Shown in pieces: positions 17,149-25,712 of a stretch of 53,714 nt of DNA. A program made the position numbers and the translations under genes. This DNA comes from Candidatus Harrisonbacteria bacterium RIFCSPHIGHO2_02_FULL_42_16 (GTDB taxonomy: Bacteria; Patescibacteriota; Minisyncoccia; UBA6257; 02-FULL-45-10c): positions 14,431 to 68,144 of the forward strand of contig MHJG01000002.1 in assembly GCA_001818695.1 (NCBI GenBank), in the 5' to 3' direction. Position 1 is the stretch's first letter. Each line of letters starts with the position of its first letter. The notes under the pieces are model-generated. The model saw nothing but the letters and a program-made list of their open reading frames with translations, made no database searches and was not told the origin of the DNA.

Positions 17149-18546
17149 TTATTTATTAAATTTATAAATAAAGCAAGTTAGGATTAGATAATATATTATC
17201 GCCGCTAAAAAGCCAAACGAGTCCGTAATAATCGGCAGAGTTATTCTGGAAAATAAATCAATGAGCCAAAGCTCGTAAGTTAAAAGCAGATTAACCGCCA
17301 AACCGACCGCCTGCGCCAAAAATTCGGAAATAAATCCCAGCCCGCCCATTAAAAATCCCAAACCCATCGTCAAGGGAACGGCGCTTAAAATTAAAATATT
17401 AGCGAGAAATGAAGTTAAAGAAAAAATGCCGAAATTCCCGAGTAATAACGGCGCGACCGCGAGCTGGGCCGAAACGGTGGTTAGGGCATTTTCCTTCCAC
17501 GATAAAAATCCCTTATTCTTAATCTTAAGAATGTTTTTCAGCGCCGGCAAAATATAAACAATGCCGAGCAATGCCGCAAAAGATAGTTGAAAACCCAAAT
17601 CAAACGCCAGCACTCTCGGATTAAATAAAACCATCAAAAACGCGGAAATGATAATGGCATTTCTGATGCTGTAAATTCTCTCCGTTTCTTCCGCTAAAAG
17701 AACGATAACGCCCATAATTGCCGCCCGGATAATAGACGCCTCCACGCCGGTCATCAAAACAAATAAAATAATAAAACCGACGCTTAAATAAAAAGAGATT
17801 AAGCGGGAAAAGAAAAAACTGAATAATGTTCCCGCCGCCAAAACGATAACCGAAATATTGTAGCCGGAAAGCGCCACGATATGGGTAGTGCCGCTCAAAG
17901 ACATTTTTTCCTCAAATTCTTTGGAAAATTCCTGCCGTTCGCCAAGAGTAATGCCGGATAAAAAAGCGGCTTTTTCCGGTGGCAAGTTTCTTTTAAAAAT
18001 TCCGATAATGCCGGTTTTAAATTTCAACAGGCGGGATTTTATATAATTTCCTTGGCCGCTTTCCAAAAGCTCAATTTTAGGAAGATTGATTATGCCGGCT
18101 ATCCCTTCTTTTAAAAAATAATCAGCGGATTTTTCCGGCGGCTTCTGAATCGCGCCAATAACTTCAACCAAGTCGCCATATTCAAAACTCGGATATCTGG
18201 CGGCATTAATTCTTATTTTACCACTGTAGGGGCTTATTAGTTCCGCGATGATTTCCTGATTAGCGCTTGATTGGCTTGCTTTTTTAATCAACGCCCTAAA
18301 CTCTGTCCGGCCGCCGAAAGGAACATTAGCTTCTCTTCGAATAGCGTCAAAAACCTGGTAATAAACCGCGCCCGCTATTATAAAAAACGCCAGCAAAGCA
18401 AAATAATATTTTTTAAAAACAATAAAATATAACGAGACAATAAGAATAAGCGGTATAATTATCGGAAGCTGGTTTACCGCGCTGGCGAAAAACACGCCAA
18501 TAAGGAAAAGGGCGCAGACCCAGAACGCTATCGTATGAATAGACAT
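17149..18546 (-). CDS. comEC: ComEC/Rec2 competence membrane-channel domain protein
   Basis: FLSGITLGERQEFSKEFEEKMSLSGTTHIVALSGYNISVI; multi-pass membrane protein. Confidence 0.92.
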   Translation of the reverse strand: MSIHTIAFWVCALFLIGVFFASAVNQLPIIIPLILIVSLYFIVFKKYYFALLAFFIIAGAVYYQVFDAIRREANVPFGGRTEFRALIKKASQSSANQEIIAELISPYSGKIRINAARYPSFEYGDLVEVIGAIQKPPEKSADYFLKEGIAGIINLPKIELLESGQGNYIKSRLLKFKTGIIGIFKRNLPPEKAAFLSGITLGERQEFSKEFEEKMSLSGTTHIVALSGYNISVIVLAAGTLFSFFFSRLISFYLSVGFIILFVLMTGVEASIIRAAIMGVIVLLAEETERIYSIRNAIIISAFLMVLFNPRVLAFDLGFQLSFAALLGIVYILPALKNILKIKNKGFLSWKENALTTVSAQLAVAPLLLGNFGIFSLTSFLANILILSAVPLTMGLGFLMGGLGFISEFLAQAVGLAVNLLLTYELWLIDLFSRITLPIITDSFGFLAAIIYYLILTCFIYKFNK

Positions 18547-18582
18547 TCAAAAATTGTATTACTTTAAAAAGATTTTTTCAAT

Positions 18583-18608
18583 AAAAATCACGCATCTAAT
18601 GATGCGTG
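18583..18608 (-). terminator. Rho-independent terminator of the ncRNA candidate
   Basis: Minus: cacgcatc-atta-gatgcgtg-attttta. Confidence 0.8.
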
Positions 18609-18959
18609 AAAGGGGTGCGGGGCGGCTACTGAAAGTTAATCGCACAGTAGCCGCCCCGGATATACAATCGGAAAACGCGCTTAGCGAGATTCGGCAAGCT
18701 CCTGGTCGCGGTAACCTTAAGGTATTCTCCCTCTTAGGCCTTTTGCCCTTGACCATTCACTCAATCCGTCCTTCGCTTACATTGGTTCTTTCAGTTGCCC
18801 CCAAGAATAATTGAGAGTTAGCGGGGCAGGCGTCAAGAAATACGGACCGCCCCTTACTCAAACCAATACCCAAGCCATTTCTATCCAGCGCGGAAAGAAA
18901 CCACCAGGGCCCGCGTTTTCCAATTGCTGTTGTTACACAAATCAAAGAACTAATGCTAT
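18583..18959 (-). ncRNA. Candidate ~377-nt structured non-coding RNA, family not recognised
   Basis: Promoter TTGACA-N16-TATAAT at 18966-18993; 15-bp long-range helix 18912-18926 / 18665-18679 (one G-U); 14-bp hairpin 18618-18658; terminator 18583-18608; no convincing ORF. Confidence 0.65.
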
Positions 18960-18965
18960 TTTACT

Positions 18966-18993
18966 ATTATAGCATACCAACAGAATTTGTCAA
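18966..18993 (-). promoter_or_regulatory. Consensus sigma-70 promoter for the ncRNA candidate
   Basis: Minus: TTGACA aattctgttggtatgc TATAAT. Confidence 0.8.
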
Positions 18994-19391
18994 GGTGTCC
19001 ATTCTACCGCGTTTACGCCATCGTCCGAAAATAAAATAATCTGTTCAGCGTTCGGAATGCCAAAAAGAATAAGTTTAATCCGCTTTGCTATTTCCGGGTC
19101 GTTCAATCCTTTAAATCCCCGCAATTTTTTATTGGCAATCCGGCTTAAAAAGCCGGACACAAACTGCTTTCTTTTTTGTTCTAATTCTTTGCCGTAAAAA
19201 GCGGTAACTTCCTGGCTCTCATAACATTGGTCGGTGATAGATTTTGTCTGTAAAAAAATCCTATATATCTGCCTTGCTCTTTTTAAAGAAATTTGAAGCT
19301 TTTTTGCCACCGTATAGGCCTTACATCCAAAATTAAACAATGGCAAAGCTCGGATTAAAAGTCGGTCTAAAGAAGCATTATTGTAATCCAT
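18990..19391 (-). CDS. Hypothetical HTH-like protein
   Basis: Start trimmed to MDYNNASLDRL, preceded by aggagggtt; AYTVAKKLQISLKRARQIYRIF looks like HTH. Confidence 0.55.
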   Translation of the reverse strand: MDYNNASLDRLLIRALPLFNFGCKAYTVAKKLQISLKRARQIYRIFLQTKSITDQCYESQEVTAFYGKELEQKRKQFVSGFLSRIANKKLRGFKGLNDPEIAKRIKLILFGIPNAEQIILFSDDGVNAVEWTP

Positions 19392-19449: not shown

Positions 19450-20712
19450 TTACGCAATAACCCCGCCACCCAGCATTTCGTACCCCCAGTCCCGCTTTGT
19501 GAAACTACGGCGGACGCTGTAAAAAACCGCTGATTGTCCCTGGGCAACAAATTTAATCGGTTGATTAAATTTTAATTTCCATGTCGCTTGTCGCTTATTG
19601 CTTTTCGCTAAAATGGCTTTTACTAACGGTTGCCGGTAACGAACGCGGACATATACGGAAATTGGGTAATTGAGTAATTGGGTAATTGAATTAATAAAAT
19701 TTATATTCTTTAATTCTATTTCTTTTTTATAAAGCGCTGGGTCGCTTTCTTCCGCGACCAAAATCGCGTTTTCTTTTACATCTTTTTCCGCAACATAAAC
19801 CGGCTTTTGCCCGACACCGGACACTTGATACTTGACGCTTAAATGCCGTTGGCCAATAGTATAAAAATGCGCTCCGCTATGCTCGCCGACAACCTTGCCG
19901 GCAGTATTTAAAACAATGCCGCGCTTTTCCGGCAAATAATTCCCCAAAAAATCTTTCAGCGTTATCTGGCCCAAAAAACAAATTCCCTGCGAGTCCTTTT
20001 TATCGGCGTTCGGCAAGCCGAATTTCTTCGCCAATTTTCTCACTTCTGGCTTGATATAATCACCAATCGGAAACAAGCAATGCCGCAACTGATTTTGCGC
20101 CAAAGTCCATAAAAAATAGGACTGGTCTTTATTTAAATCTTTAGCAGCAAACAATAAATAGCGAAGGTGTTGCCGAGTTGCTGTGGAGAAACTTCGGAGC
20201 TTCGAAAAGATTGGTGTCGCCATAGGCGACTTTTCGAAGCGAGACGTAGCGGGCGCTCGCCGCTGGAGCGAGCGAACCGCGGTTCTCGCAGGCAATTCGG
20301 CAACACCCGAACGCACGTAATGCCCTGTCGCCACATAATCCGCTCCCATATCCAACGCCTTTTTCAAAAACAATCCGAACTTAATTTCTTTATTGCACAT
20401 CACATCCGGATTCGGCGTAATTCCCTGCCGGTATCCATCCACCATATACTCCACCACCTTTTCTTTATATTCTTTTTCAAAATCAAAGACATAAAACGGA
20501 ATGCCCAAAACCTCCGCCGCTCTCCGCGCGTCTTCAGAATCTTGCTCTGCAGAGCAAGATTCTGCCCTGAGCGTAGTCAAAGGGCTACCGCTCCAGCACT
20601 TCATATGAACTCCAACTACATCAAAACCCCGTTTTTTTAAAAGCGCCGCCGCCACACTTGAATCAACGCCCCCGCTCATTGCCACGAATACTTTTTTAAT
20701 AACGCTTGACAT
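19450..20712 (-). CDS. mnmA: tRNA-specific 2-thiouridylase
   Basis: KKVFVAMSGGVDSSVAAALLKKRGFDVVGVHMK; ATGHY; KDQSYFLWTL; DSQGICFLG. Confidence 0.95.
   Translation of the reverse strand: MSSVIKKVFVAMSGGVDSSVAAALLKKRGFDVVGVHMKCWSGSPLTTLRAESCSAEQDSEDARRAAEVLGIPFYVFDFEKEYKEKVVEYMVDGYRQGITPNPDVMCNKEIKFGLFLKKALDMGADYVATGHYVRSGVAELPARTAVRSLQRRAPATSRFEKSPMATPIFSKLRSFSTATRQHLRYLLFAAKDLNKDQSYFLWTLAQNQLRHCLFPIGDYIKPEVRKLAKKFGLPNADKKDSQGICFLGQITLKDFLGNYLPEKRGIVLNTAGKVVGEHSGAHFYTIGQRHLSVKYQVSGVGQKPVYVAEKDVKENAILVAEESDPALYKKEIELKNINFINSITQLLNYPISVYVRVRYRQPLVKAILAKSNKRQATWKLKFNQPIKFVAQGQSAVFYSVRRSFTKRDWGYEMLGGGVIA
20166..20307. repeat. Complex palindromic element in frame inside mnmA
   Basis: Outer arms ggtgttgccgagttgc / gcaattcggcaacacc (1 mismatch); inner gcttcgaaaa/ttttcgaagc and gtcgcc/ggcgac; flanking cgaa on both sides. 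Confidence 0.75.
20535..20564. repeat. 30-bp perfect palindrome inside mnmA
   Basis: cagaatcttgctctg|cagagcaagattctg, followed by ccctgagcgtagtcaaaggg. Confidence 0.85.
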
Positions 20713-20780: not shown

Positions 20781-21077
20781 ATGTACTCAAAGCAAATGAA
20801 AATCGTGTACCGTGTGATTGGTCTCATTGCGATAGCGATAACAATAGGAATGCTTACGCCCATGCCCGCATTCAGATTCTTTTCAATTGATATAAAAGCC
20901 CATGACGCCAAACCCGATCCTTGCCAGCAATATCAAGAAAACGCCTTAAAATACATTCAAATGACAGAAGAATATCGAAAAAAAGAGTGGTGGCCAGGAG
21001 AGGCGGCTTCTGTGGCAGCAGCTTATAGCAGCTATTATCTCGTCTGTCGCGACCTTGAAAAACGGCAAAACCGCTAA
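20781..21077 (+). CDS. Small single-TM hypothetical protein ending CRDLEKRQNR
   Basis: SD aggaggg, N-terminal TM segment; C-terminal 10 aa identical to the ORF at 21793. Confidence 0.6.
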   Translation: MYSKQMKIVYRVIGLIAIAITIGMLTPMPAFRFFSIDIKAHDAKPDPCQQYQENALKYIQMTEEYRKKEWWPGEAASVAAAYSSYYLVCRDLEKRQNR

Positions 21078-21084
21078 GCTGTTC

Positions 21085-21297
21085 TCAAATATAAATGCCC
21101 AACCTGTAAAGGTTGGGCATTCTTTTTAAGAAATTCGCCAGAAACTTGTCTGATTTTTTTAAATAAAATACCTTAATGCCTTTAGGCAAATAATCATCAA
21201 CATTATGGTTAGCTCCCATAATTAAAATCCCGGTTTCGTCATCTTTTAAGGTCTGGCTTATTTGTTTAGCAATATATCGGTCCCGGCGCAACAGCAT
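21085..21297 (-). pseudogene. Truncated duplicate of the 22157-22714 gene
   Basis: DRYIAKQISQTLKDDETGILIMGANHNVDDYLPKGIKVFYLKKSDKFLANFLKRM is nearly identical to the longer gene; 5' leader remnant at about 21398-21472. Confidence 0.75.
21096..21132. terminator. Terminator hairpin, copy 1
   Basis: aaatgcccaacctgtaaaggttgggcattcttttt; duplicated at about 22146-22182. Confidence 0.75.
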
Positions 21298-21472
21298 TTT
21301 AATTCTTCCTCAACAATATTCCAAAATAAATTTAACACCCCTTTTTATTCAACAGTTAAAATACCGCGCCTACCAGAATCAGCCGAACTATGCATCACGC
21401 GAATATAAATCAATCTCCGCATTATTACCTCCTTCAATTTGCTGGCTATACAGTAGCACGGAAACTATAAAT

Positions 21473-21733
21473 TTAAAAGCCCATAAACCGCTCTCCTGCC
21501 TTATAAACATCGCCGGCGCCCATAGTAATCACCAAATCGTCTTTTTTAGTTTCCGCGATTAAAATTTTTGCCGCTTTTGAAAAATTCTCCGCGTAGCGCG
21601 CGTTTTTATGGTATTTTTGCGTTTTTTTAACCAAATCAGCCGAGCTGGTGCCGTCATTTTTTTCCCGCGCCGCGTAAATATCCACTCCTCCGGACATGGC
21701 TACAAATACTTTTTTCTTTTTAACATTTGACAT
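21473..21733 (-). pseudogene. Chimeric ORF: MnmA N-terminus fused to MurC C-terminus (duplication junction)
   Basis: MSNVKKKKVFVAMSGGVD matches the MnmA start; IYAAREKNDGTSSADLVKKTQKYHKNARYAENFSKAAKILIAETKK... matches the MurC C-terminus. Confidence 0.85.
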
Positions 21734-21792
21734 ATTAAGATAGGTAGATTATATTACTTTTAGACCTCAAAAATCAAACTAGGGACTGGGGG

Positions 21793-22128
21793 ATGAAAAT
21801 GAAAAAAAGATCTCGCCGCAAAGAGAATGACCATCTGGCAGACCAGCAATTGGAATGTCAATCCAAAAGAACTATATGGGTTCCTATTGCTATCCTGATA
21901 ATTATTGTCTCCATAGGAATAACCGGTTTATCCCTATTAGAAAAATCAGATAATAGAAAAATCGCGGAAAGAAAAAAGGTATTCATGGCCCGTATTCAAT
22001 CCGGAGATTGTAAACAATTATATAAGGAATCTCTGGAAGATGCAGCTAATATGCTTTGGCAGTCTTCAGCCGCTAAGGGCGTTCTTTACCAAAACTGCCG
22101 CGACCTTGAAAAACGGCAAAACCGCTAA
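21793..22128 (+). CDS. Small single-TM hypothetical protein ending CRDLEKRQNR
   Basis: 111-aa ORF; TM segment WVPIAILIIIVSIGITGLSLL; upstream TTGACA-N17-TATATT. Confidence 0.6.
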   Translation: MKMKKRSRRKENDHLADQQLECQSKRTIWVPIAILIIIVSIGITGLSLLEKSDNRKIAERKKVFMARIQSGDCKQLYKESLEDAANMLWQSSAAKGVLYQNCRDLEKRQNR

Positions 22129-22156
22129 GCTGTTCTCAAATATAAATGCCCAACCT

Positions 22157-22714
22157 TTACAGGTTGGGCATTCTTTTTAAGAAATTCGCCAGAAACTCGT
22201 CTGATTTTTTTAAATAAAATACCTTGATGTCTTTAGGTAAATAATCGTCAACATTATGGTTGGCCCCCATAATTAAAATTCCGGTTTCGTCATCTTTTAA
22301 GGTCTGGCTTATTTGTTTAGCAATATATTTATCTCTAAGCCGCCTTATTTTTGCCATTTCTTCTTCACAGCAAAGAGCTAATCTGAAATTATCGCATAAT
22401 TCTTCGTTCTCGGTCAGCATTAATTTTGCTCCTCGTTTTATTAAATTCAAAATTAATTTGTAATTCCTACTTCCGTCTGCGCTTCTTTTTTCCATTTCGG
22501 CGTAAATTTCTTTGCCATCCTCGCAATAACCATCTTGATACAAGCGTGTCTGCGAATACCTTAAATTAATTCTACCTAATTCTTTCTCGGCCATATCCCA
22601 AAAAGAATTTATGAAGTTTTCCTTTTTAACATCAAAACCAATACCATTACTAAAATCAACGGGGCTATGTATCACGCGAATATAAATTAATCTCCGCATT
22701 ATTGCCTCCTTCAA
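22157..22714 (-). CDS. Hypothetical protein (GILIMGANHNVDDYLP motif)
   Basis: 185-aa ORF; likely start MRRLIYIRVIHSPVDF. Confidence 0.6.
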   Translation of the reverse strand: MKEAIMRRLIYIRVIHSPVDFSNGIGFDVKKENFINSFWDMAEKELGRINLRYSQTRLYQDGYCEDGKEIYAEMEKRSADGSRNYKLILNLIKRGAKLMLTENEELCDNFRLALCCEEEMAKIRRLRDKYIAKQISQTLKDDETGILIMGANHNVDDYLPKDIKVFYLKKSDEFLANFLKRMPNL

Positions 22715-22749
22715 TTTGCTGACTACATAGTAGCACGGAAACTATAAAT

Positions 22750-24024
22750 TTAAAAGCTTGTAAACTGCTCTCCTATTTTATACACATCGCCGGCGCCCAT
22801 AGTAATAACCAAGTCGCCTTTTTTTGTTTCCGCGATTAAAATTTTTGCCGCTTTTGAAAAATTCTCCGCGTAGCGCGCGTTTTTATGGTATTTTTGCGTT
22901 TTTTTAACCAAATCAGCCGAGCTGGTGCCGTCATTTTTTTCCCGCGCCGCGTAAATATCCATTACTATTACCGCATCGGCATCATTAAAACTTTTCGCGA
23001 AATCATTCATCAATAATTTCGTCCGGCTGTAAAGATGCGGCTGAAAAACGCAAAAAATCTTTTTATTCGCAAAAGCTTCCCGCACGGCTTTCAGCGTGGC
23101 TTTAATTTCAGCCGGATGATGGCCGTAATCGTCATAAACCAAAACGCCGTTTTTAGTTTTACCTTTATATTCAAATCTCCGCCAAGTACCGGAAAAATTT
23201 TCCAAGGATTTCCGAATAGTATTTTCCCGAATACCAAGCATTTTCCCGACCGCGAACGCCGCCTGCGCGTTATCCAAATTATGTTCGCCGATAACTTTCA
23301 ATTTAAAATCGCGCGGCAATTTTGTATAATCAATAATTTCACATTTCGCAATTTTCACAACCGGCTTCATATATTTCCCGTTCGGATTGCAAATCAAATA
23401 ACCGTCTTTTCCCAATTTAGCCGCAAATTCGCCAAAGGCCTTCTGAATATTTTTAACGCTCTTATAATAATCCAAGTGGTCATTGTCAATGTTAGTGATA
23501 ATAGCAATTTTAGGATTGATATTTAAAAATGACCGCTTATACTCACACGCCTCCACCACAAAATATTTGCTTCTACCGGCAACAAAATTAGATTTTTCCT
23601 CTCTCAATAAACTTCCGACAATTATCGTCGGGTCCAATTTGGCGTCGCGGAGCATCATTCCGACCATCGCCGTAGTGGTGGTTTTTCCGTGCGCTCCGGA
23701 AACCGCAATCGTGTATTTATCTTTGGAAATTGCGCCGAGCATTTCTGGATACGAAAATGTTCGGATGCCAAGCTTTCTTGCCTTAATTAATTCCGGATTA
23801 TTTTCGGCTACTGCCGGCGAATACACCACCAAATCCGCCGCTTTCAAATTTTTCCCGCTGTGCCGATAATAAATCTTTGCCCCGATTTTTTCCAGCGCTT
23901 TGGTAATTTCCGAACGCGCGATATCCGAACCACTTACCGTCTTCTTCCCCCGTAAGAACATCCGCGCAACCGCCGAAACCCCAATTCCGCCAATGCCGAT
24001 AAAATGTATCTTTTTACTTGACAT
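22750..24024 (-). CDS. murC: UDP-N-acetylmuramate--L-alanine ligase
   Basis: KIHFIGIGGIGVSAVARMFL; SGAHGKTTTTAMVG; DDYGHHPAEIKATL. Confidence 0.96.
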   Translation of the reverse strand: MSSKKIHFIGIGGIGVSAVARMFLRGKKTVSGSDIARSEITKALEKIGAKIYYRHSGKNLKAADLVVYSPAVAENNPELIKARKLGIRTFSYPEMLGAISKDKYTIAVSGAHGKTTTTAMVGMMLRDAKLDPTIIVGSLLREEKSNFVAGRSKYFVVEACEYKRSFLNINPKIAIITNIDNDHLDYYKSVKNIQKAFGEFAAKLGKDGYLICNPNGKYMKPVVKIAKCEIIDYTKLPRDFKLKVIGEHNLDNAQAAFAVGKMLGIRENTIRKSLENFSGTWRRFEYKGKTKNGVLVYDDYGHHPAEIKATLKAVREAFANKKIFCVFQPHLYSRTKLLMNDFAKSFNDADAVIVMDIYAAREKNDGTSSADLVKKTQKYHKNARYAENFSKAAKILIAETKKGDLVITMGAGDVYKIGEQFTSF

Positions 24025-24091: not shown

Positions 24092-24829
24092 ATGACTAAC
24101 TTAGCGCTGTGGCTGGTAACGGTGAGCGCGTATTTCGAGGTATGGTACTGGTTAAATGTTCCGGTTGGATTACAAAAATCCGTCTGGCGAATTAGTTTGC
24201 TAATGCTTCTCTGCGCCCCTTTTAACATTAATGATAATGTGTTCACGATACTTGGAAATGCCGTGAGCCAAAAGAACAGTTACGCTCTTTTCCCTTTATA
24301 TCAAAAAGCGGAACAGAAAGCAGATGCTCCATTTGCTCTGTACCAATCAGCTGGACAGAAAGCAGATGCTATATTTGCTCTGTACCAATCAGCTGGACAG
24401 AAAGCAGATGCTATATTTGCTCTGTACCAATCAGCTGGACAGGGAGCAAGTGCTGCATTTACTCTGTACCAATCAGCTGGACAGATAGCAGTGGCTGGAT
24501 TTGCTCTGTACCAATCAGCTGGACAGGGAGCAAATACTATATTTGCTCTGTACCAATCAGCTGGACAGAAAGCAGATGCTACATTTACTCTGTACCAATC
24601 AACTGAAAAGGACGCATTTGCTATATTTACTCTGTACCAATCAGCTGGACAGGGAGCAGATGCTATATTTGCTCTGTACCAATCAGCTGGACAGAAAGCA
24701 GATGCTATATTTGCTCTGTACCAATCAGCTGGACAGGGAGCAGATGCTTTATTTGCTCTGTACCAATCAGCTGGAAAAAAATCGGGCTCTCGGAGTTTTT
24801 TCAGAAATAAATCAAAACTAAAAGATTAA
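24092..24829 (+). CDS. Repeat protein: N-terminal TM region plus twelve 14-aa repeats (FALYQSAGQKADAI)
   Basis: SD aaaggagga; 42-bp repeats 24290-24793 in frame; followed by a terminator. Confidence 0.7.
   Translation: MTNLALWLVTVSAYFEVWYWLNVPVGLQKSVWRISLLMLLCAPFNINDNVFTILGNAVSQKNSYALFPLYQKAEQKADAPFALYQSAGQKADAIFALYQSAGQKADAIFALYQSAGQGASAAFTLYQSAGQIAVAGFALYQSAGQGANTIFALYQSAGQKADATFTLYQSTEKDAFAIFTLYQSAGQGADAIFALYQSAGQKADAIFALYQSAGQGADALFALYQSAGKKSGSRSFFRNKSKLKD
24290..24793 (+). repeat. 12 x 42-bp tandem repeat array (coding)
   Basis: Unit tttgctctgtaccaatcagctggacagaaagcagatgctata. Confidence 0.93.
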
Positions 24830-24885: not shown

Positions 24886-24913
24886 ACAAAACACAGATAT
24901 GTAAAAATTGTTT

Positions 24914-24931
24914 GGTTCTAATATTAGAACC
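24914..24931. promoter_or_regulatory. 18-bp palindrome ggttctaatattagaacc, site 1
   Basis: Perfect palindrome; four sites in about 0.7 kb. Confidence 0.8.
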
Positions 24932-25017
24932 AGACATAAAAAAATAATAAAAATTAAAGATGTATAAATTTAAAAAATAAGTTAGCAAAAAATCTAAGGT
25001 ATTTATACTCATTACTT

Positions 25018-25035
25018 GGTTCTAATATTAGAACC
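25018..25035. promoter_or_regulatory. 18-bp palindrome, site 2
   Basis: ggttctaatattagaacc. Confidence 0.8.
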
Positions 25036-25057
25036 GAGCTTCTTATACTAAAAAAAA

Positions 25058-25444
25058 TTAAAGGAGGTCAATAATGTTTGTCGCGCCTTTATATTTCCGA
25101 CGAAACGGTTTAAATGTTTTTTCTTGTCTAAATACTGAGTATTTTCTTTTTCTGTTAGGATTTTTTCCGTATCCTCTGCCGGCAATAATATCACTTATTT
25201 TGCTTATAGTCCCACTAGAAATGCCCAATAATTCTTTAATATCCCTATATTTCCTCTTTTTTTCCAATAGCTTAATCACCGCGATTCTGCGAATAAAGAG
25301 TATCTTCTCATCAGAGGTCATAAATTTATTTAAAAATTCCTCTGCCTGATTAAACGAGTTAATCTTTTTAAATTCTTTTAACAATTCCGAAGCAATTTCT
25401 TTCTCTAACGCTTTATTTAATTTTTTGTTTTTAATTATTGCCAT
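25058..25444 (-). CDS. TrpR-like (YerC/YecD-type) HTH regulator
   Basis: FMTSDEKILFIRRIAVIKLLEKKRKYRDIKELLGISSGTISKISDII is a TrpR-superfamily HTH. Confidence 0.85.
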   Translation of the reverse strand: MAIIKNKKLNKALEKEIASELLKEFKKINSFNQAEEFLNKFMTSDEKILFIRRIAVIKLLEKKRKYRDIKELLGISSGTISKISDIIAGRGYGKNPNRKRKYSVFRQEKTFKPFRRKYKGATNIIDLL

Positions 25445-25508
25445 ATCAACACTATATTAGTAACACATTAGTAATACTGTATTAAAACTATCATACCACA
25501 TCTTACCT

Positions 25509-25526
25509 GGTTCTAATATTAGAACC
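25509..25526. promoter_or_regulatory. 18-bp palindrome, site 3 (upstream of the TrpR-like gene)
   Basis: ggttctaatattagaacc; next to a possible minus-strand promoter TGGTATGAT. Confidence 0.8.
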
Positions 25527-25593
25527 ACGAGGAAATGAGTAAAACTTTCCAAAATTCTGCTAATGGGTATTTTATAAAAATAAAGCAGTATCT

Positions 25594-25611
25594 GATTCTA
25601 ATATTAGAACC
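25594..25611. promoter_or_regulatory. 18-bp palindrome, site 4 (one base changed)
   Basis: gattctaatattagaacc. Confidence 0.75.
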
Positions 25612-25667
25612 ACAAGGAAATGAGTAAAACTTTCCAAAATTCTGCTAATGGGTATTTTATAAAAAAA

Positions 25668-25712
25668 TAGCCCAGCTCCGACTTGCCAATGTGGCGAATC
25701 GGAGCGGGGCTA
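25668..25712 (-). terminator. Strong hairpin downstream of the 25760 gene
   Basis: tagcccagctccgacttgcc-aatgt-ggcgaatcggagcggggcta. Confidence 0.65.

What the first reader, a model, noticed from the sequence alone, without database searches (positions are those of the whole stretch)
18583..18993. Candidate novel ~377-nt structured RNA with consensus promoter and terminator
On the minus strand TTGACA-N16-TATAAT precedes about 377 nt with no convincing ORF. Long-range pairing CAATTGGAAAACGCG/CGCGTTTTCCGATTG closes a multi-helix body (ATTGGTT/AACCAAT, GGGGC/GCCCC); then come a 14-bp GC-rich hairpin (CGGGGCGGCTACTG/CAGTAGCCGCCCCG) and a terminator. The size is that of RNase P RNA or tmRNA, but I find no GAGGAAAGUCC or ACAGAA..GGCUUA, no tRNA-like T-arm or A..LAA tag, and no SRP GGAAGCA loop. 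A strong promoter implies an abundant RNA.
Basis: partly seen in the sequence, partly recalled or inferred. Interest (0 to 1): 0.85.

Follow-up and report, generated by a model that had tools for sequence, protein, structure and literature searches.

The report
Orphan structured RNA gene in Patescibacteria
A small-genome bacterium of the candidate phyla (related to Candidatus Harrisonbacteria) carries a stretch of about 380 bases that looks like a strongly promoted, folded RNA gene with no recognisable relative in anything we could search: probably a real, lineage-specific RNA of unknown job, but not a proven new RNA class.

Summary
On the minus strand a perfect TTGACA-N16-TATAAT promoter (18993-18966) precedes about 380 nt of GC-rich (52% vs 41%), ORF-poor sequence with a 16-pair closing helix, three inner arms, a 14-bp hairpin and an intrinsic terminator (to 18583). 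comEC downstream has its own promoter, so this reads as an independent unit. Rfam gives nothing. tmRNA lies elsewhere in the genome. RNase P RNA is missing from the 754-kb assembly (91% complete) although RnpA is present and all 16 same-family genomes searched have rnpB; the candidate has none of the RNase P conserved blocks, so it is not RNase P by any test run. BLAST and a single-sequence covariance model find no homologue in 17 family or 392 class genomes, phages or plasmids, whereas tmRNA (74-78%) and rnpB (72%) stay recognisable. One relative (G003) has a similarly promoted structured stretch at the same mnmA-comEC position but without sequence similarity; the nearest relative in a ComEC tree (G001) has none. 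Covariation is therefore untestable. Best reading: a lineage-specific structured RNA gene acting in trans, one of at least three such orphans in this genome. That it is an RNA gene: about 0.72. Its function is inferred only.

The parts
18966..18993 (-). sigma-70-type promoter TTGACA-N16-TATAAT with extended -10 (TGC before TATAAT)
   Evidence: 12 of 12 matches; genome-wide excess of such promoters
18583..18960 (-). inferred RNA transcript (start about 6-7 nt after the -10; end in the T-run)
   Evidence: ends inferred, no RNA data
18928..18960 (-). 5' leader; contains GTTCTTTGA (boxA-like, weak lead only)
18912..18927 (-). 5' arm of long-range closing helix GCAATTGGAAAACGCG
18664..18679 (-). 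3' arm of long-range closing helix CGCGTTTTCCGATTGT
18868..18910 (-). inner arm A
   Evidence: predicted fold
18781..18867 (-). inner arm B, ATTGGTTT/AGAACCAAT enclosing the GGGGC/GCCCC hairpin and a second hairpin
   Evidence: predicted fold
18683..18778 (-). inner arm C, long imperfect arm closed by AGCGA/TCGCT
   Evidence: predicted fold
18618..18658 (-). 14-bp GC-rich hairpin CGGGGCGGCTACTG/CAGTAGCCGCCCCG
18583..18609 (-). intrinsic terminator (9-bp stem, 4-nt loop, T-run)
18553..18581 (-). separate promoter-like site TTGAAA-N17-TACAAT directly before the comEC ATG (leaderless)
   Evidence: sequence
17149..18546 (-). comEC-like competence gene downstream
   Evidence: Pfam PF03772 E 1.8e-44
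18990..19391 (-). small HTH-like ORF upstream (likely ATG at 19391 after AGGAGGG); similar ORFs precede comEC in relatives
   Evidence: no Pfam or NCBIfam match
19450..20712 (-). mnmA (tRNA 2-thiouridylase)

Best explanation
An independently transcribed, lineage-specific structured RNA gene. Shown from sequence: perfect promoter, GC-rich stretch, stable multi-helix fold closed by a long-range helix, two 3' stem-loops of which the last is an intrinsic terminator, no protein-coding signal, and a separate promoter for the next gene. Inferred: RNA polymerase makes a stable RNA of about 375 nt that folds into a closed multi-branched body with a protective 3' hairpin and acts in trans. The mechanism I think most likely is a protein-binding scaffold or decoy RNA (in the manner of 6S or CsrB-type RNAs) rather than an antisense RNA, because the molecule is almost fully paired and the genome holds no long complement of it; that last step is a guess (about 0.3). 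It is one of at least three such orphan RNA candidates in this genome.
For: Promoter and terminator; promoter class 23 vs about 0-1 expected; fold z -5.9 whole, -3.4 body; long-range helix and 14-bp hairpin each reached by 1% or fewer of shuffles; GC 0.52 vs 0.41; no protein family in any frame; comEC with its own promoter. Two other ORF-poor structured stretches of the genome start at the same promoter type with 16-nt spacer and TGC-TATAAT: L113:4539-4891 upstream of rpsO and L138:14834-15095. In G003 the same mnmA-comEC interval holds TTGACA-N16-TATACT, a 333-nt stretch with z -4.6 and a terminator. No long complement elsewhere in the own genome.
Against: No homologue, hence no covariation and no conservation. 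G001, the nearest relative in the ComEC tree (83/93 support), lacks it at this site. The body z-score lies within the best 5% of ordinary windows. No transcript data.
Confidence: 0.72

Rival explanations
1. Decaying or neutral insert: a once-functional RNA or foreign fragment that keeps its promoter and terminator only because it is recent, and does nothing now.
For: Absent from the corresponding sites in G001, G006, G010 and L078; no homologues.
Against: Perfect promoter, uninterrupted long helix, hairpin and terminator all stand together, in a small genome.
Confidence: 0.12
2. Leader or attenuator of comEC: the RNA is the 5' part of the comEC transcript and its terminator is conditional.
For: Lies directly upstream of comEC here and, as a different sequence, in G003.
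Against: comEC has its own TTGAAA-N17-TACAAT site between the terminator and its ATG; relatives without the RNA also have a hairpin with T-run before comEC, where it follows the HTH gene (sequences); no cis-regulatory Rfam match.
Confidence: 0.07
3. RNA of a mobile or RNA-guided element (omega RNA, bridge RNA, retron RNA, TIGR array).
For: Lineage-specific and sits in an interval that is shorter in relatives.
Against: No direct repeats in the interval; no transposase, reverse transcriptase or Nop-domain gene among the neighbours scanned; no Rfam match; no phage or plasmid match.
Confidence: 0.05
4. Relocated and extremely divergent RNase P RNA: rnpB left its ancestral site and this is it.
For: RnpA is present but rnpB is not found by RF00010, RF00011 or a profile of relatives' RNAs; in relatives rnpB follows an RNase H gene, while here that gene is followed by hpf and secA; the size fits.
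Against: None of the blocks that are invariant in the family (such as GAGGAAAGTCCGGACAC, ACAGAATCCGGCTTA) is in it; no RNase P match at E up to 10. An assembly gap is simpler: 91% complete, 25 contigs.
Confidence: 0.03

Closest known systems
Bacterial structured sRNA genes such as 6S RNA and CsrB-type decoys (general kind)
   Same: Own sigma-70 promoter, noncoding, mostly double-stranded, intrinsic terminator.
   Different: Multi-branched body of about 265 nt instead of one long hairpin (6S) or repeated GGA hairpins (CsrB, from general knowledge); no Rfam match.
RNase P RNA (RF00010, RF00011)
   Same: Similar length, body closed by a long-range helix; the genome's own rnpB is missing.
   Different: Lacks the conserved blocks; not detected by covariance models or a family profile.
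tmRNA (RF00023)
   Same: Similar length; promoter-driven.
   Different: The genome has a tmRNA on contig C9 at 136 bits; no tRNA-like ends here.
Structured stretch upstream of comEC in G003 (L135:8243-8609), not a named family
   Same: Same position, same promoter layout (TTGACA-N16, TG before the -10), 333 nt, structured, terminator.
   Different: No sequence similarity beyond shuffles and not hit by the candidate's covariance model.

Membership tests
RNase P RNA | Match to RF00010 or RF00011 covariance model | tested here: not met
RNase P RNA | Conserved blocks GAGGAAAGUCC (CR-I) and ACAGAA..GGCUUA (CR-V) | tested here: not met
   motif scan and profile over window and genome; family invariants
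tmRNA | tRNA-like domain with tag frame; RF00023 match | tested here: not met
   the tmRNA is elsewhere
6S RNA and SRP RNA | Rfam covariance match | tested here: not met
Other Rfam 15 families (large ncRNAs, riboswitches, leaders) | Rfam covariance match | tested here: not met
TIGR array | Tandem alternating 8-12 nt repeats with 9-nt spacers (PMC12045711) | tested here: not met
   no direct repeats inside 18583-18993
Independent bacterial sRNA gene | Own promoter and intrinsic terminator, no coding signal | tested here: met
Independent bacterial sRNA gene | Transcript observed | not testable with these tools
   no expression data
New structured RNA class | Homologues with covarying helices | tested here: inconclusive
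   no homologues found

The most novel reading that the evidence does not exclude
Founding member of an undescribed class of large, strongly expressed, fast-evolving structured RNAs in Patescibacteria, with a positional counterpart in G003 and sister RNAs on contigs C11 and C3 of the same genome that have diverged beyond sequence recognition.
Probability: 0.17. Interest if true: 0.7.

Novelty: new member of a known kind. Interest (0 to 1): 0.4.

Why it matters
If transcribed and functional, it shows that reduced Patescibacteria genomes keep several strongly promoted structured RNAs that no RNA family database covers and that turn over between genera while tmRNA and RNase P RNA stay recognisable. 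It also points to a checkable oddity: this genome has RnpA but no detectable RNase P RNA.

Tried and rejected
BLAST hits in G042, G011 and G012: short chance matches; the G042 one lies in what reads as coding sequence. Homology of the candidate with the G003 stretch and with the C11 and C3 orphans: pairwise scores at shuffle level; the best involving the candidate (25 nt, C3) is about 1.5 sd above the mean. Single-sequence covariance model without filters on syntenic loci: short weak matches only. Shared 5' leader with G003: 7% of shuffles as good. boxA in the leader: GTTCTTTGA is there, but the enrichment behind promoters is too thin to claim. DNA patterns in viral contigs: none. A first z-score scan timed out and was replaced by a coarser one. 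Papers on Patescibacteria noncoding RNAs: nothing relevant found in the held library. Parts of G003 and the end of one G006 contig could not be fetched, but both genomes were searched whole with the model. The RNase P reading was tested and set aside, see rivals.

Full report
What is there. The minus strand between a small HTH-like gene and comEC carries TTGACA-N16-TATAAT at 18993-18966 with a TG extension, 12 of 12 matches, then about 380 nt without a convincing reading frame, a 9-bp terminator ending at 18583, and a second promoter-like site TTGAAA-N17-TACAAT at 18581-18553 directly before the comEC ATG. By sequence the candidate is a transcription unit of its own. Perfect promoters of this type occur 23 times in the 754-kb genome and 0 to 1 times in simulated sequence.

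Structure. The transcript folds at -150.3 kcal/mol, z -5.9; the 265-nt body alone at -100.8, z -3.4. In a scan of 269 stretches of the window 4.5% were below -3.4, so the body fold is supportive and not proof. The closing helix of 16 pairs is reached by 3 of 300 shuffles and the 14-bp hairpin by 2 of 300. GC is 0.52 against 0.41 for the genome.

What it is not. Rfam 15 gives nothing at gathering level for the interval and only chance matches at E up to 10. tmRNA is elsewhere, C9:42721-43064, 136 bits. RNase P RNA was not found in the genome with RF00010, RF00011 or a profile of 23 relatives' RNAs that recovers control loci strongly, although RnpA is present and all 16 same-family genomes searched have rnpB. 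In several relatives rnpB follows an RNase H gene; here the RNase H gene is followed by hpf and secA with no rnpB between. The candidate carries none of the family-invariant RNase P blocks, so I ascribe the absence to an assembly gap or relocation and not to this RNA.

Relatives. The window comes from a Patescibacteria genome whose nearest named ComEC relatives are Candidatus Harrisonbacteria and similar MAGs at 60-61% identity. Nucleotide search found nothing beyond chance in 60 relatives or in the family. A covariance model built from the candidate alone found only itself (apart from a 10.5-bit match at E about 1 in the same genome) in 17 family genomes and only itself in 392 class genomes, the latter with stricter filters. 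Phages and plasmids gave nothing. As yardsticks, tmRNA is 74-78% identical between this genome and G003 or G006 over most of its length, and rnpB has 72% mean column identity in the family. The candidate is therefore either new to this lineage or evolving much faster than the housekeeping RNAs.

Synteny. G010, G001, G006 and L078 have an HTH-like gene before comEC and no RNA of this kind there. G003 has no HTH gene but a stretch with TTGACA-N16-TATACT, 333 nt of structured sequence (z -4.6) and a terminator. The two show no sequence similarity, the G003 stretch has no convincing match in 246 genomes of the order, and in a ComEC tree this genome groups with G001 (83/93, below the tool's own star threshold), not G003. 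Homology of the two is unproven. In the own genome two further orphan stretches start at the same promoter type: upstream of rpsO on C11, where G006 and G003 show nothing comparable, and on C3; permissive Rfam scans gave no convincing match for either.

Mechanism. Shown: the anatomy. Inferred: transcription, stability, action in trans. I favour a protein-binding scaffold or decoy because pairing is extensive and the genome holds no long complement, with low confidence for that step. The comEC-leader reading is weakened by the separate comEC promoter. Verdict: a credible orphan ncRNA gene of unknown function; novelty as a class is unproven because no homologues turned up in what could be searched.

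Noticed in passing
own genome G000, L105:7484-7777 (C3) and whole assembly: RNase P RNA is missing from the place after the RNase H gene where relatives have it and from the whole assembly, while RnpA is present at C9:2953-3222.
   Followed up: partly
L113:4539-4891 (G000 C11): Second orphan structured stretch with perfect promoter and terminator, just upstream of rpsO; not seen upstream of rpsO in G003 or G006.
   Followed up: partly
L138:14834-15095 (G000 C3): Third orphan structured stretch of about 230 nt with perfect promoter and terminator.
   Followed up: partly
L135:8243-8609 (G003 C10): Structured, promoter- and terminator-flanked stretch between mnmA and comEC in a related genome, without sequence similarity to the candidate.
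   Followed up: partly
window 24092-24829: Reading frame of 245 aa built on about eleven 42-nt tandem repeats (ALYQSAGQ...), no strong family match.
   Followed up: no
window 24907-25671: Palindrome GGTTCTAATATTAGAACC in several copies on both sides of a TrpR-related gene (25058-25444), possibly its operators.
   Followed up: no
window 21044-22876: Duplicated segments (83-95% identical) between mnmA and murC, with a chimeric frame 21473-21733 joining an mnmA-like start to a murC-like end.
   Followed up: no
seven genomes of the family (G000, G001, G002, G003, G006, G009, G010): No small SRP RNA (RF00169) detected in any of them.
   Followed up: no
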